Source of the DNA: Meiothermus luteus
Lineage (GTDB): Bacteria; Deinococcota; Deinococci; Deinococcales; Thermaceae
Direction: 5' to 3'
NCBI RefSeq assembly: GCF_003574085.1
Contig: NZ_QWKZ01000004.1
Coordinates: forward strand, 1 to 50,641
DNA length: 50,641 bases
In this document: piece by piece, positions 1-4,633 of the stretch
How positions within the stretch are numbered: position 1 is the stretch's first letter
Layout: each line of letters opens with the position of its first letter
Program-made: the position numbers and the translations under genes
Notes under the pieces: generated by a model
Seen by the model: only the letters and a program-made list of their open reading frames with translations
Databases searched by the model: none
Told to the model about the DNA's origin: nothing

Positions 1-409
1 CCGCTAGCCCGTCCACCAGTATTTTGAGGGGGGCGCGCTTTTGGGGGTTGGCCTCGAGCCGGGGCGGGCGGAACATCAAGTAGGCCGCGAGGAGCATTAC
101 CACCGCGAAGAGGCCGAGCTGCCAGACCCCCGGCACCCACTTGGACAGGTAGGCCCCCAAGTAGGTGCCCACCATCCCCGGAAGGCCGAACCAGACCACG
201 TTCCGCCAGTCAATCAGCCCTTTGCGGGCGTAGGGTATGGCCCCTACCAGCGCGATTAGGCCCACAATGGCCAGGGACTCGGCGATGGCCAGCTTGTCGG
301 GTTCGCCCACCAGGTAGACCAGGATGGGCACAGTGAGGATGGAGCCCCCCGAGCCCAGCATGCCCAGGGCCAGCCCAATCAGGACCGCGCCGGTGAGGGC
401 TAGGAGCAC
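1..409 (-). CDS. TauE/SafE family sulfite/anion exporter (partial, C-terminus off window)
   Basis: Last visible gene of the minus-strand sulfur operon; only the first 136 codons are inside the window. It starts at GTG 409 and overlaps the end of the preceding rhodanese gene by about 10 bases, so translation is probably coupled. The protein opens with a hydrophobic helix and a glycine pattern (GLALGMLGSGGSILTVPIL) typical of the TauE/SafE (TSUP) membrane family, followed by at least three more hydrophobic segments. Members of this family export sulfite, sulfoacetate or other small sulfur anions. In the Staphylococcus cst operon a tauE gene also accompanies persulfide dioxygenase genes, so export of sulfite or thiosulfate formed by the upstream enzymes is the likely job. 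Substrate is inferred from context only. Confidence 0.85.
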   Translation of the reverse strand, partial: MLLALTGAVLIGLALGMLGSGGSILTVPILVYLVGEPDKLAIAESLAIVGLIALVGAIPYARKGLIDWRNVVWFGLPGMVGTYLGAYLSKWVPGVWQLGLFAVVMLLAAYLMFRPPRLEANPQKRAPLKILVDGLA

Positions 410-747
410 AGGGCCTCCTCGGGTCTGTGGGGGGCTAGGGGGCCAGAGGTTCGCTCGAGGGGGTACCCCTGGGCGGCGTAGCCCTGGATGCCCCCCACCA
501 GCCGGCCCACCTCAAAGCCCTCGTAGGCCAGCACCTCGGCGGCCAGGCCCGCCCGGCTTCCCGTGGCGCAGAGGGTTACGATGGGGCTTCTTAGCTCGCC
601 CAGGTGCTCAAGAAGCCTCTCCAGGGGGAGGTTGCGCGAGCCTGGGATGTGCCCTAGGGCGTACTCCTCCGGCGAGCGCACATCCAGGAGCAGAGCGCCC
701 CGCTTCTGCCAAAGGGAAAGCTCGGTAGGGAAGATGTCCTGCATCAT
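400..747 (-). CDS. Single-domain rhodanese (sulfurtransferase)
   Basis: A 115-residue single rhodanese domain. I start it at ATG 747, whose ATGA overlaps the TGA of the upstream gene; the open frame extends further upstream but that part runs antisense-like inside the neighbour. The CH2A-type motif LLLDVRSPEEYALGHIPGS and the active-site loop with cysteine (LCATGSRAG) are present, so it should form a cysteine persulfide. The loop differs from the CRSG type of its neighbours, which suggests a different partner or substrate. Fifth gene of the operon, ahead of the TauE-like exporter. Role: relay of sulfane sulfur from persulfide or thiosulfate; exact acceptor unknown. Confidence 0.85.
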   Translation of the reverse strand: MMQDIFPTELSLWQKRGALLLDVRSPEEYALGHIPGSRNLPLERLLEHLGELRSPIVTLCATGSRAGLAAEVLAYEGFEVGRLVGGIQGYAAQGYPLERTSGPLAPHRPEEALCS

Positions 748-1085
748 TTCACCGGTAGCTTCGCCCGCTTCCAGGCCTCCAGGCCGCCCGCCAGGTTGTA
801 CGCCCGGTAGCCTTTCTCGGCCAAAAAGCGGGCGGCCTGGGCGCTGCGGGCCCCACTGCGGCACTGGCAGATGATTTCCTTGTCCCTAGGAAGCCGCTCC
901 CACTCACTGGGGAGCCTGTCCAGCGGCAGGCCCAAGGAGCCTGGGATTTTCTCCTCCTTGCGCTCTAAGGGGGTGCGCACATCCAGGATGATGGCCCCGG
1001 CCTTGGCCCTCTGGTGGGCTTCTTCTGGGCTTAGGCGGCCCACCTTGGGTCCTCCCCCGAGCAGGTTTTTGAGCCAGCCAATCAA
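744..1085 (-). CDS. Single-domain rhodanese with N-terminal amphipathic stretch
   Basis: A 113-residue protein with one rhodanese domain. The N-terminus (MIGWLKNLLGG) is a short amphipathic segment that may attach it to the membrane. The motif AIILDVRTPLER is followed by an active loop CRSGARS containing the catalytic cysteine; a second cysteine sits two residues before it (CQCRSG), so an internal disulfide or persulfide exchange is possible. It overlaps the upstream tandem rhodanese gene by 4 bases (ATG 1085 inside that gene's last codons) and the downstream rhodanese gene by ATGA. Sulfur carrier/transferase of the persulfide operon; the specific substrate cannot be read from sequence. Confidence 0.87.
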   Translation of the reverse strand: MIGWLKNLLGGGPKVGRLSPEEAHQRAKAGAIILDVRTPLERKEEKIPGSLGLPLDRLPSEWERLPRDKEIICQCRSGARSAQAARFLAEKGYRAYNLAGGLEAWKRAKLPVK

Positions 1086-1741
1086 CGCTCCACCTCTAGC
1101 CCTGCAGCCATCCAGCCGTAGGTGCCGCCCTCGAGGTTCCCCACCTGGTTTCCCTCAAAGCCCTGCCCCATCAGGTACTCCGCGGCCTGGGAGGAGCGGT
1201 TGCCCGAGGCGCAAACCAAAAGCAGCCTGCGGTCCTTGGGGAGTTGGCTGGCCTCGGCGACGAAGCGGCTTAGAGGAATGTTGACCGCCCCCGGAATGTG
1301 CCCCATAGCGTACTCGTAGGGCTCCCGCACATCCACCACATAGGCCCCTTCCCGAATCCAGGCCTGGGCCTCTTGGGGGGTGAGCTCGGTGAAGGCGGTG
1401 TGTTGGTAGACGGCCTCTTGTGGCTCGGTGTCCAGCGGCAACCCAGCCTGGTACCAGGCCAGGATGCCCCCGTCCAGGTTCAGGACGTTTGGATGCCCCT
1501 TGGCCGAGAGCCAGGCCGCAGCCTGGGCGCTGCGGGCCCCGCTGCGGCAGTAAAGCACCACCGGCGCGTCCTTGGGAATCTCCTGGTACCGCGCAGCGAA
1601 CTCCGAAAGGGGGATGAGCCGGGCACCCTCAATGCGTGCCTGGGCGAACTCCTCGGGTTCCCGCACATCTACGAAAAGCGCTTTCTGTTCCTGTAACCTG
1701 CGGGCTTCGGTAGGGCTGATGTCTTTGTATAGGGTGAGCAT
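1082..1741 (-). CDS. Tandem rhodanese, both domains with active-site cysteine
   Basis: A 219-residue protein made of two rhodanese domains (about 1-105 and 112-219). Domain 1 has ALFVDVREPEEFA and loop YCRSGARSAQ; domain 2 has YVVDVREPYEYAMGHIPGA and loop VCASGNRSSQ. In most two-domain thiosulfate sulfurtransferases only the C-terminal domain keeps the cysteine; here both do, which suggests two working persulfide sites. The gene lies 12 bases after the preceding rhodanese gene and overlaps the next by 4 bases. No signal peptide is seen, so cytoplasmic. Sulfane-sulfur transfer is inferred from family and context. Confidence 0.88.
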   Translation of the reverse strand: MLTLYKDISPTEARRLQEQKALFVDVREPEEFAQARIEGARLIPLSEFAARYQEIPKDAPVVLYCRSGARSAQAAAWLSAKGHPNVLNLDGGILAWYQAGLPLDTEPQEAVYQHTAFTELTPQEAQAWIREGAYVVDVREPYEYAMGHIPGAVNIPLSRFVAEASQLPKDRRLLLVCASGNRSSQAAEYLMGQGFEGNQVGNLEGGTYGWMAAGLEVER

Positions 1742-1753
1742 CTTCTTCCTCTC

Positions 1754-2062
1754 CTAAACGGGGCTTGCACAGGGAATTCCAGCCTCGCGCCAGGCCTTTA
1801 TCCCTCCCTCGAGCTGCCAGACCCTCTTGTAGCCCAGCTTCTGCAAGGTTTTGAGGGCTTCCTGGGAGCGGTTGCCGCTGCGGCAGTAAAGCAGGGTGGG
1901 CGCCTCGCGCTCGAGGTACAAGGGGGCCAGCTTCTCCAGCTTGGATAAGGGCAGCCTTATCGCCCCTGGTAGGACGCCTTCGGCCCACTCATGGGGCTCA
2001 CGGATGTCTACCACCCGGTAGCGCTCTAGGGTCTGGTAAGCAACCCGCACATCCAGGTTCAC
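1754..2062 (-). CDS. Single-domain rhodanese
   Basis: A 102-residue rhodanese domain immediately downstream (22-base gap) of the persulfide dioxygenase gene. It shows RVVDIREPHEWAEGVLPGA near the N-terminus and the active loop YCRSGNRSQEA with the catalytic cysteine near residue 60. An AGGAGG-like ribosome site precedes ATG 2062. Cytoplasmic by lack of signal peptide. As the first gene after the dioxygenase it is a good candidate to deliver persulfide to that enzyme or to take thiosulfate sulfur from it. This direction of flow is inference. Confidence 0.87.
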   Translation of the reverse strand: MNLDVRVAYQTLERYRVVDIREPHEWAEGVLPGAIRLPLSKLEKLAPLYLEREAPTLLYCRSGNRSQEALKTLQKLGYKRVWQLEGGIKAWREAGIPCASPV

Positions 2063-2084
2063 AATCCACCTCCTAGACCGGGGC

Positions 2085-3527
2085 TTAGGCGCCCACCAGG
2101 GCCAGGGCAGGGCTTTTTTCTATGGGGAAGCCCTCCTGTTGCCAGGCCCGGATACCTCCAGTCAAGTTGATGAGGTTGGTGAAGCCGGCCCCCATCAGGG
2201 CGCTGATGGCGGTAGAGGAGCGGTCACCGCCCAGGCAGTGCACCACCACCGGTTTGTCCTTGGGTATCTGGCTCAGGTGCCGCATTACCCGACCGGCATG
2301 GATGTTCAGGGCCCCTGGGATGTGGCCGGATTTGTACTCGTCGGCCCCACGCACGTCCAGGATGAACACCTCACCCTTCTCCCAGCGGGCCTTGGCCTCG
2401 GCTGCGGTGATTTGGGGGACGGTTCTTAGCTCCCCCTCGGCATAGCCTTCCAGGGTTGGGATGAACCCCACCACCCGGTCCAGCCCAATGCGGACGAGCT
2501 GCTTGACCAGCTCCGGCACCCGCTCGGCTGAGGCCAGCAAGACCAGGTCACGTTCGTAGGGCAGCAGCCAGCCTGCCCAGGTGGAGAAGTTCTTGCCCGC
2601 GGGGATGTTGATGGCCCCCTCGAGGTGCCCCCCAGCAAAGGCCAGCTTGTCCCGGGTGTCTACCAGCAGGGCCCCTTCGGCCAGCCGCCGGCGGAAGGCC
2701 TCAGGGGTGAGCTGGGGAGGCTCGGGAAGCCTGCCCAGGATGGGCATCCCGTCCCGGTTGAGCTGCTTCATCTGGGCGAAGTAGTAGGGGGCCTCAGGCT
2801 GGCCCGAGAGCAGGGCCTTTACAAAGCCTTCCTCGTCGTTCCTACGCAGGTAGTCGGCCCACCAGGCGAAGCGGCGCTCATAGCCCACGGTGGTGCTGGC
2901 CACCGCGCCCAACCCCTTGCCGCAGGCGCTGCCGGCTCCGTGCCCGGGCCATACCTGTACGTAGTCGGGGAGGGTGAGGAACTTTTCCTTGAGGCTTCGG
3001 AACAGCCGGCGGGCCCCCGGCTCGGCGGTGCCTTGGATTCCGGCCGCCTCCTCTAGGAGGTCGGGGCGGCCCACATCCCCTACGAACACGAAATCGCCGG
3101 TCAGGAAGTAGCCCGGCTCGCTGGCCACTGCGCCGTCCTGCACCAGGAAGCTCAGGTGCTCGGGGGTGTGCCCGGGGGTGTGCACCGCGGTGAGGGTAAG
3201 GTTGCCGATTTTAATCTGGTCCCCGTCCTTGAGGAGCTGGTGGTCAAAGCCCTCTAGGCCATTGTACTTCCAGTTTTCGTCCCCCTCGTCGCTTAGGTAG
3301 AGCCTGGCCCCAGTGGCCTTGGCCAGTTCGCGCGCCCCGGAGAGGTAGTCGGCGTGGATGTGGGTCTCGGCAACGGCCACAATCCGCATCCCGTTCTTTT
3401 GTGCCTCGTTCAGGTAAACCTGGATGTCCCGGCGAGGGTCCACCACCACCGCCACCCCCGCGGCCTGACAGCCGATGAAGTAGCTCCCTTGAGCCAAGCC
3501 TTCCTCGTAGATGTGCTTGAAGAGCAT
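2085..3527 (-). CDS. CstB-like persulfide dioxygenase with pseudo-rhodanese and rhodanese domains
   Basis: A 480-residue first gene of the sulfur operon. Residues 1-250 are a metallo-beta-lactamase fold of the ETHE1/persulfide dioxygenase branch: metal motif THIHADYLSG, then HTPGHTPEH, the aspartate in LTGDFVFVGDVGRPDL and the late histidine in VWPGHGAGSACG. Residues about 275-365 form a rhodanese-like domain whose loop (LLASAERVPE) has no cysteine and is therefore inactive; residues about 375-470 form an active rhodanese domain with VHCLGGDRSS. This three-part order matches Staphylococcus aureus CstB, which oxidises low-molecular-weight persulfides and yields thiosulfate. Start ATG 3527 has a strong AGGAGG 8 bases upstream (3535-3540). 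Expression is probably controlled by the twin operators at 3553-3594. Confidence 0.9.
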   Translation of the reverse strand: MLFKHIYEEGLAQGSYFIGCQAAGVAVVVDPRRDIQVYLNEAQKNGMRIVAVAETHIHADYLSGARELAKATGARLYLSDEGDENWKYNGLEGFDHQLLKDGDQIKIGNLTLTAVHTPGHTPEHLSFLVQDGAVASEPGYFLTGDFVFVGDVGRPDLLEEAAGIQGTAEPGARRLFRSLKEKFLTLPDYVQVWPGHGAGSACGKGLGAVASTTVGYERRFAWWADYLRRNDEEGFVKALLSGQPEAPYYFAQMKQLNRDGMPILGRLPEPPQLTPEAFRRRLAEGALLVDTRDKLAFAGGHLEGAINIPAGKNFSTWAGWLLPYERDLVLLASAERVPELVKQLVRIGLDRVVGFIPTLEGYAEGELRTVPQITAAEAKARWEKGEVFILDVRGADEYKSGHIPGALNIHAGRVMRHLSQIPKDKPVVVHCLGGDRSSTAISALMGAGFTNLINLTGGIRAWQQEGFPIEKSPALALVGA

Positions 3528-3549: not shown

Positions 3550-3577
3550 GATATATCCCTATGGGGTATATTGTCAA
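3550..3577 (-). promoter_or_regulatory. Promoter of the sulfur operon
   Basis: On the minus strand a perfect -35 box TTGACA (3572-3577) is followed after 16 bases by TATATC (3550-3555). Transcription would start near 3543, leaving a leader of about 16 bases that contains AGGAGG before ATG 3527. The palindrome at 3553-3569 fills the -35/-10 spacer and a second palindrome touches the upstream side of the -35 box, so a bound repressor would block RNA polymerase. Confidence 0.75.
3553..3569. promoter_or_regulatory. CsoR/CstR-type operator 1
   Basis: 17-bp inverted repeat ATATCCC-TAT-GGGGTAT, seven bases each side of a 3-base centre. It sits between the -35 and -10 boxes of the sulfur operon. The form AT-rich flank, C-run, short centre, G-run, AT-rich flank is that of operators bound by CsoR-family repressors; the persulfide sensor CstR of this family controls homologous operons in Firmicutes. 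No csoR/cstR gene lies in this window. Confidence 0.7.
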
Positions 3578-3594
3578 ATACCCCCCTGGGATAT
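3578..3594. promoter_or_regulatory. CsoR/CstR-type operator 2
   Basis: Second 17-bp copy, ATACCCC-CCT-GGGATAT, same arm lengths and centre length as operator 1. Its centre is 25 bp from that of operator 1 and it abuts the -35 box on the upstream side. Both copies fit ATAYCCC-N3-GGGRTAT. Two sites of the same design at one promoter argue against chance. Confidence 0.7.
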
Positions 3595-3650
3595 TAAGCC
3601 CTTTCCCTGAGCATAAGGCTCCAGCCTCCTCGCGCGTAACCCCAGGGTAG

Positions 3651-3689
3651 GCATAACCTTTCATCTGAGCAAATAGCAAAAGGTTATGC
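3651..3689. promoter_or_regulatory. Inverted repeat upstream of lysR-type gene, probable LTTR operator
   Basis: Perfect 11-bp arms GCATAACCTTT (3651-3661) and AAAGGTTATGC (3679-3689) separated by 17 bases. The repeat ends 38 bases before the LysR-type start codon and is separate from the CsoR-like operators. LysR-type regulators usually bind interrupted dyads next to their own gene, so autoregulation is the simplest reading. A weak -10 (TATGAT, 3708-3713) follows it. Confidence 0.55.
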
Positions 3690-3727
3690 ACCTCTTCACG
3701 TTTGGGGTATGATGGCGGTGGCCGAGT

Positions 3728-4633
3728 ATGCGCCTAAATCCCCGCTACCTGGTGGTTTTCTGTGTGGTGGCCGAGCTGCGCAGCTTGAGCCGGGCTGCCG
3801 AGGTCCTGAACCTCAGCCAGCCTGCGGTGAGCAAGACCCTAAAAGCGCTGGAGAGCGTATTGCGGCAGTCCCTTTACGAGCGCACCCCACAGGGCATCGT
3901 CCTCACCGAAGCAGGTAAGGCTCTTTTGCCTTACGCCTGCGCGGTCAACCGCAGCCTGGCCCACGCCGCCCGCTTCATTCAGGAGCGGCGCTACCGGCGC
4001 GTTCCCAGGCTGGAGGTGGGCCTGGCCTGGAGCCTAATTCCCCGCTACCAAAGCCGGCTTCTCCTTTGGGCCAAGGCGCATCTGAATCGCTGCGAGCTTC
4101 ACCTAACCAACGGCACAACGTTGGAGCTGATAGAGAAGGTCTACCAGCGCGACTTGGAGGCGGCGCTGGTTTTGGGGGGCACGGACGACCTTCCCGAGCC
4201 CTTGCTGGCCCGCCGTCTTACCTCGGACGAGGTGGTGCTGGTGGTGGCCCCGGGCCATCCCTGGGCGGACCTAGGGGGGGCCGCGCTGGGGCAGCTCGAG
4301 GGCGCGGTGCTCCTGGTGCCCCAGCGCAACTCCCGTCTGCGCCTGCGCCTAGAGCAGTTCCTTGAGCGGCACGGAATTGTGCCGCAACAGGTACTGGAGT
4401 GCGGCAGCCTCTATGGGGTCAAAACCGCAGCGGCCGCCGGGTTGGGTGTGGGGCTGGCCTGCCGCTCGTTTGTGGAGCCGGAGGTCGCGGCCGGTGCGCT
4501 GCGGGCCTTGCTCATTGAGGACGCGGGCTTTTCGCTGGGGGTACACTGGGTAGCCTACCCCGAGTCGTCGGTGGACCTGGCGGCTCGAGAGCTGCTCGAG
4601 CACCTGCGGGGCTACCTAGAGGCTCCTGCCTGA
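3728..4633 (+). CDS. LysR-type transcriptional regulator
   Basis: A 301-residue regulator of normal LTTR length. The N-terminal winged helix-turn-helix spans about residues 5-65, with the recognition region SLSRAAEVLNLSQPAVSKTL and the wing YERTPQGIVLTEAGKAL. Residues about 90-295 form the periplasmic-binding-type effector domain. Start ATG 3728 is chosen because the LTTR pattern begins immediately (MRLNPRYLVVF). It is divergent from the sulfur operon, with 200 bases between the start codons, and ends inside the 3' end of trmL on the other strand (22-base overlap). Control of the sulfur operon, of itself, or of a distant sulfur gene are all possible; the effector is unknown. Confidence 0.85.
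   Translation: MRLNPRYLVVFCVVAELRSLSRAAEVLNLSQPAVSKTLKALESVLRQSLYERTPQGIVLTEAGKALLPYACAVNRSLAHAARFIQERRYRRVPRLEVGLAWSLIPRYQSRLLLWAKAHLNRCELHLTNGTTLELIEKVYQRDLEAALVLGGTDDLPEPLLARRLTSDEVVLVVAPGHPWADLGGAALGQLEGAVLLVPQRNSRLRLRLEQFLERHGIVPQQVLECGSLYGVKTAAAAGLGVGLACRSFVEPEVAAGALRALLIEDAGFSLGVHWVAYPESSVDLAARELLEHLRGYLEAPA

What the first reader, a model, noticed from the sequence alone, without database searches (positions are those of the whole stretch)
3550..3594. Twin CsoR/CstR-type operators around a perfect -35 box
Two 17-bp palindromes of form ATAYCCC-N3-GGGRTAT, centres 25 bp apart, sit one in the -35/-10 spacer and one just upstream of TTGACA. Firmicute CstR, a CsoR-family persulfide sensor, binds sites of this design in front of cst operons. 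If a CstR-like protein binds here, persulfide-responsive control extends to Deinococcota. No CsoR-type gene is in the window, so it must lie elsewhere.
Basis: partly seen in the sequence, partly recalled or inferred. Interest (0 to 1): 0.7.

Follow-up and report, generated by a model that had tools for sequence, protein, structure and literature searches.

The report
CstR-type operators controlling persulfide detoxification operon
Two DNA docking sites in the promoter of a sulfur-detoxification operon in a Meiothermus bacterium belong to a small, strongly conserved network that a persulfide-sensor-like repressor, found elsewhere in the same genome, very probably switches off until sulfur stress appears; it is a clear new example of a known kind of control.

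Summary
Two exact ATAYCCC-N3-GGGRTAT palindromes (3553-3569, 3578-3594) flank a TTGACA box on the minus strand, 25 bp from the start of a cst-like operon: CstB-like persulfide dioxygenase-rhodanese, five further rhodanese domains, a TauE exporter. The own genome holds only five exact sites, all in sulfur or thiol-redox promoters. One lies upstream of an operon that ends in a CsoR-family gene with the two CstR cysteines and Tyr instead of the copper His. In 22 related genomes 74 of 75 exact sites lie upstream of four recurring gene sets. The site follows the CstR clade across 111 Deinococcota genomes (44/53 with, 4/58 without) and is absent from nearly all Thermus genomes, which lack that clade. 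Copper CsoR is unlikely: own copper operons carry the different Thermus copper operator. Limits: the operator design is shared by copper CsoRs elsewhere, persulfide sensing itself is untested, and a CstR-like Sox repressor (TTHA1953) was already described in Thermus. Verdict: real, well supported, a new member of a known kind.

The parts
3553..3569 (.). Operator 1 (ATATCCCTATGGGGTAT), in the -35/-10 spacer, overlapping the -10
   Evidence: exact pattern match; same position in 21 PDO promoters examined
3578..3594 (.). Operator 2 (ATACCCCCCTGGGATAT), abutting the -35 box, 25 bp from operator 1
   Evidence: exact match; a second site with 0-2 mismatches 24-25 bp upstream in 20 of 21 PDO promoters
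3572..3577 (-). -35 box TTGACA
   Evidence: conserved across the genus
3550..3555 (-). probable -10 box TATATC (16-bp spacer)
   Evidence: sequence reading; inferred
2085..3527 (-). CstB-like persulfide dioxygenase (MBL fold) fused to two rhodanese domains, 480 aa; first gene of the operon
   Evidence: Pfam Lactamase_B + 2 Rhodanese; full-length match to PDB 3tp9 (1e-138) and 3r2u (5e-106)
1754..2062 (-). single-domain rhodanese
   Evidence: PF00581
1082..1741 (-). double-domain rhodanese
   Evidence: PF00581, two stretches
744..1085 (-). single-domain rhodanese
   Evidence: PF00581
400..747 (-). single-domain rhodanese
   Evidence: PF00581
2..409 (-). TauE/SafE-type sulfite exporter, cut by the contig end
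   Evidence: PF01925; open 3' end

Best explanation
The two palindromes are operators of a CstR-type repressor (own genome C157:2308-2580, 90 aa, Cys40/Cys69, Tyr65 at the copper-His position). Reduced CstR sits on the sites, covers the -35/-10 region and keeps RNA polymerase off the operon. When persulfides or polysulfides rise, the two cysteines are joined or persulfidated across protomers, the repressor lets go, and the dioxygenase, rhodaneses and sulfite exporter are made. The same switch controls the repressor's own operon (disulfide oxidoreductase-rhodanese-cstR), a thioredoxin reductase-SLAC1 exporter operon and a TlpA-like redoxin gene. Shown here: sites, promoter overlap, target genes, regulator with the CstR fingerprint, conservation. 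Inferred: DNA binding by this protein, persulfide as effector, direction of control.
For: Five exact sites in the genome, at four loci, all upstream of sulfur or thiol-redox genes. One site is 21 bp upstream of the operon that ends in the CstR gene. 74 of 75 exact sites in 22 genomes lie upstream of the same gene sets, mostly inside TTGACA/TTGCNN...TATAAT spacers. Twin sites in 20 of 21 dioxygenase promoters. Site and CstR clade co-occur, 44/53 against 4/58, Fisher p 4e-17. Both Cys and the Tyr are invariant in a 10-sequence CstR set, a group apart from copper CsoR and TTHA1953 in the tree order. Target protein is full-length CstB-like. In 12 related loci a sulfide:quinone oxidoreductase lies next to it, as in cst operons.
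Against: No binding or expression data. The operator design is not specific to CstR; Streptomyces copper CsoR binds nearly the same sequence (PMC3902906). The own genome lacks the neighbouring SQR gene. Nine genomes have the CstR clade without an exact site. Many Meiothermus genomes carry two CstR paralogs, so which one reads which site is open. The groups were defined by profile score and residue fingerprint; tree supports were not assessed.
Confidence: 0.85

Rival explanations
1. A copper CsoR binds the sites and the operon is copper-controlled.
For: Copper CsoR sites in Streptomyces have the same 17-bp design (ATACCCCTGGTGGGTAT). Two copper-type CsoRs (Cys-His-His) are in the genome. Of the exact 17-bp hits in the named loci outside Deinococcota, those whose protein was checked are Cys-His-Cys, copper-type.
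Against: The own copper operons carry a near-copy of the Thermus copper operator (CCCCACTCCACCTGGGGTGGGA, 2 mismatches; CCCCACCCCTCCCTGGGTGGGG, 3) and no ATAYCCC site with fewer than 2 mismatches. No exact site of the own genome is at a copper gene. Thermus genomes have copper CsoR but almost no such sites.
Confidence: 0.05
2. The TTHA1953 ortholog (own C57 protein, Cys38/Cys67, Phe at the copper-His position) binds the sites.
For: It is a two-Cys CsoR-like protein; its Thermus counterpart represses sulfur genes and is thiol-sensitive (PMC10318464).
Against: TTHA1953 selects TACNNTACNNNNGTANNGTA and does not bind the G-tract copper site tested. Thermus genomes have this protein, but only three of those searched have even one exact site. 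Trueperaceae have the site and the CstR clade without a listed TTHA1953-type match.
Confidence: 0.07
3. The divergent LysR regulator, or another unrelated protein, is the main controller, and the palindromes are minor.
For: A LysR gene starts 133 bp from operator 2, and a 39-bp palindrome (3651-3689) lies between.
Against: The 17-bp sites recur at promoters with no LysR neighbour (GrxPDO, TrxR, TlpA), and the LysR palindrome is outside the core promoter.
Confidence: 0.03

Closest known systems
CstR and the cst operon of Staphylococcus aureus (also Enterococcus faecalis CstR; Bacillus licheniformis YrkD)
   Same: Two-Cys CsoR-family repressor without the copper His; persulfide dioxygenase-rhodanese (CstB), rhodaneses, TauE and, in sister genomes, SQR as targets; more than one operator at the promoter.
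   Different: In Meiothermus the regulator is not next to this operon. The regulon is spread over four loci and includes thioredoxin reductase, a glutaredoxin-like disulfide oxidoreductase, a TlpA-like redoxin and a SLAC1/TDT exporter; S. aureus CstR was inferred to control one operon (PMC5480029).
TTHA1953 of Thermus thermophilus HB8 (PMC10318464)
   Same: Deinococcota, CsoR-family, two Cys (C39, C68), represses sulfur oxidation genes, thiol-controlled.
   Different: Different group (Phe at the copper-His position), different motif (TACNNTACNNNNGTANNGTA, no G tract), different targets (Sox). An ortholog is present in the own genome as a separate protein (C57).
ScCsoR of Streptomyces coelicolor (PMC7533328)
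   Same: Two-Cys CsoR-like repressor of persulfide dioxygenase, rhodanese and exporter, with two sites in the dioxygenase promoter; releases DNA with polysulfide.
   Different: Site reported as ATACC-N6-GGTAT (16 bp); Actinomycetota; compact gene cluster.
Copper CsoR, type 2 operators (PMC3902906) and TtCsoR
   Same: Same TAC-N9-GTA pseudopalindrome with G tracts (S. lividans).
   Different: Copper ligands Cys-His-Cys/His present; in Thermaceae the copper operator is CCCCACCCCACCTGGGGTGGGG, near-copies of which are at the own copper operons.

Membership tests
CstR subfamily (regulator C157:2308-2580) | CsoR-family domain (PF02583) | tested here: met
   84.6 bits, cut-off 22.8
CstR subfamily (regulator C157:2308-2580) | Two conserved Cys at the CstR positions | tested here: met
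   Cys40 and Cys69 align with both Cys of E. faecalis CstR chain 7mq1; invariant in 10 group members
CstR subfamily (regulator C157:2308-2580) | No His at the copper-ligand position | tested here: met
   Tyr65; copper paralogs have His, EfCstR has Asn
CstR subfamily (regulator C157:2308-2580) | G-tract inverted-repeat operator over sulfur-gene promoters, including its own operon | tested here: met
CstR subfamily (regulator C157:2308-2580) | Loss of DNA binding on reaction with per/polysulfide | not testable with these tools
   needs purified protein
cst-type operon (window 2-3527) | CstB-like dioxygenase-rhodanese | tested here: met
   3r2u and 3tp9 full length; Lactamase_B + 2 Rhodanese
cst-type operon (window 2-3527) | TauE-type exporter | tested here: met
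   PF01925, partial gene at contig end
cst-type operon (window 2-3527) | SQR in or next to the operon | tested here: not met
   absent here; best own match 27% identity on another contig; present in 12 sister loci
Copper CsoR control | Site at copper efflux genes | tested here: not met
   own copper loci carry the TtCsoR-type operator instead
TTHA1953-type operator | TACNNTACNNNNGTANNGTA | tested here: not met
   no exact match in the own genome; the same search found none in Thermus either, so it is a weak test

The most novel reading that the evidence does not exclude
Meiothermus splits thiol-based sulfur sensing between two CsoR-family proteins with different fingerprints and motifs: a CstR-type (Cys-Tyr-Cys, G-tract operator) for persulfide removal plus thioredoxin/disulfide-oxidoreductase repair, and a TTHA1953-type (Cys-Phe-Cys) for Sox energy metabolism. 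Thermus kept only the second.
Probability: 0.35. Interest if true: 0.6.

Novelty: new member of a known kind. Interest (0 to 1): 0.42.

Why it matters
It gives a compact, strongly conserved regulon (four promoters) and names its likely repressor in a thermophile lineage where only the Sox repressor TTHA1953 had been described in the papers found. It joins persulfide sensing to thioredoxin reductase and disulfide oxidoreductase genes, and gives a clean natural contrast (Meiothermus against Thermus) for how CsoR paralogs divide metal, persulfide and Sox control. All steps can be tested with small purified proteins.

Tried and rejected
The TTHA1953 consensus was searched in 61 genomes: almost no exact matches, none in Thermus, so it cannot be used to map that regulon. 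The motif alone as proof of CstR was rejected, because the same design serves copper CsoRs. The weaker own-genome matches (1-2 mismatches) were not counted as sites: 25 of them stand against 15 for the reversed control. Exact sites in three Thermus genomes and one other CstR-lacking genome showed no sulfur-gene pattern; treated as chance or unexplained. No curated NCBIfam CstR model matched. The original S. aureus CstR operator papers are not held, so the Firmicute operator sequence was not compared letter by letter.

Full report
OBSERVATION. The two sites are real and exact: 3553-3569 and 3578-3594, centres 25 bp apart. On the minus strand TTGACA is at 3577-3572, site 2 abuts it upstream, and site 1 fills the spacer and overlaps a weak -10 (TATATC, 3555-3550, or TATCGT with an 18-bp spacer). 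The first gene starts at 3527, 25 bp from site 1, behind an AGGAGG-type ribosome site.

TARGET. The minus-strand operon encodes a 480-aa metallo-beta-lactamase-fold persulfide dioxygenase with two rhodanese domains, then single, double, single and single rhodaneses and a TauE exporter cut by the contig end (the window is the whole contig C159). The first protein matches PDB 3tp9 and 3r2u over its full length. From my own knowledge, 3r2u is the S. aureus protein later named CstB; the table only calls it a metallo-beta-lactamase family protein.

GENOME. Only five exact sites exist in the 2.87-Mb genome: the two here, C157:1227, C201:384 and C216:552; the reversed-pattern control gives none. C157:1227 lies 21 bp before a gene for a glutaredoxin-like protein disulfide oxidoreductase, followed by a rhodanese and a CsoR-family gene, and also faces a divergent rhodanese. 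C216:552 precedes thioredoxin reductase and a SLAC1/TDT-type exporter. C201:384 precedes a gene cut by the contig end, which in sister genomes is a membrane-anchored TlpA-like redoxin followed by a second CstR-type gene.

REGULATOR. The genome has five PF02583 matches: two copper types next to CopZ/CopA (Cys-His-His), one ortholog of Thermus TTHA1953 (C57; the Thermus members have Cys39 and Cys68 as in the paper), a Cys-less partial copy near CcdA, and the C157 protein. The C157 protein has Cys40 and Cys69, aligned with both cysteines of E. faecalis CstR, and Tyr65 where copper CsoRs have His. In a FastTree ordering the Deinococcota proteins fall into copper, TTHA1953 and CstR groups (supports not assessed). 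Both Cys and the Tyr are invariant in ten diverse CstR-group sequences.

CONSERVATION. All 18 genomes of the genus have 2-6 exact sites; one of them also has a control match. Of 75 exact sites fetched from 22 genomes, 74 lie within 288 bp upstream of a sulfur or thiol gene, in repeating sets: dioxygenase-rhodanese, disulfide oxidoreductase-rhodanese-CstR, thioredoxin reductase-SLAC1, and TlpA-like redoxin. The gene sets were named from the own genome's sites, so the independent part of this test is the other 21 genomes. The sites usually sit between -35 and -10, and their right arm supplies the first bases of the -10. In the dioxygenase promoter a second site with at most 2 mismatches lies 24-25 bp upstream in 20 of 21 cases, so the twin arrangement is a conserved feature.

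CO-OCCURRENCE. Over 111 Deinococcota genomes, 44 of 53 with a CstR-group protein (profile E at most 2.2e-33) have an exact site, against 4 of 58 without (Fisher p 4e-17; counts read from the two tables by hand; genomes are related, so the p-value overstates independence). Thermus (genus g5) has copper CsoR and TTHA1953 but not CstR, and only three of its genomes have an exact site. Trueperaceae have the CstR group, and several of their sites are also at dioxygenase, SQR-like or disulfide oxidoreductase-CstR promoters. This points to CstR, not TTHA1953 or copper CsoR, as the protein that reads the site.

COPPER RIVAL. The 17-bp TAC-N9-GTA design is general for the family (PMC3902906). Among 80 CsoR-family loci from many phyla only the N5 spacing (ATAYCC-N5-GGRTAT) occurs, 15 times, with none at other spacings, and those of the loci outside Deinococcota whose protein was checked are copper-type. 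The motif alone therefore did not prove CstR. The own copper operons, however, carry near-copies of the Thermus copper operator, which separates the two systems here.

MECHANISM. Most likely reduced CstR represses by covering the promoter, and persulfide or polysulfide releases it, as reported for S. aureus CstR (PMC5480029), B. licheniformis YrkD (PMC9918477) and Streptomyces ScCsoR (PMC7533328). Here binding and effector are inferred.

NOVELTY. CstR-type control is known in Firmicutes and Actinomycetota, and a CstR-like Sox repressor with another motif is known in Thermus (PMC10318464; NaHS did not reduce its binding). No paper on a Meiothermus CstR regulon was found in the held library, which covers only open-licence papers. 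The new points are the four-locus regulon with thiol-repair genes and the Meiothermus/Thermus contrast.

Noticed in passing
window 3651-3689 and 3728-4633: A divergent LysR-family gene with a near-perfect 39-bp palindrome (GCATAACCTTT...AAAGGTTATGC) upstream; nearly the same palindrome is in G011 (L108) and related forms in G001 and G013. It may be the LysR's own site.
   Followed up: partly
L095, L089, L108, L121 and other PDO loci; absent at window 3595-3727: In 12 sister loci an SQR gene lies between LysR and the operator; here it is missing and no close SQR is in the genome, so the sulfide input may come from another enzyme.
   Followed up: partly
L268:1501-1517 and L304:1501-1517: Exact operator right at the start of mnmG (tRNA U34 modification) next to dnaA in two Trueperaceae genomes; chance or a link to tRNA modification is open.
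   Followed up: no
L005:1441-1707 (own C157:9409-9675): A CsoR-like gene without the usual cysteines, between CcdA and a phosphatase-like gene near sox-type genes; it looks degenerate or frameshifted.
   Followed up: no
L022:1-252 (own C201): The contig breaks inside the TlpA-like redoxin gene; the second CstR paralog that follows it in sister genomes was not found in this assembly.
   Followed up: partly
L132:1916-1932: The one exact site not near the listed sulfur genes precedes a DUF302 protein gene.
   Followed up: no
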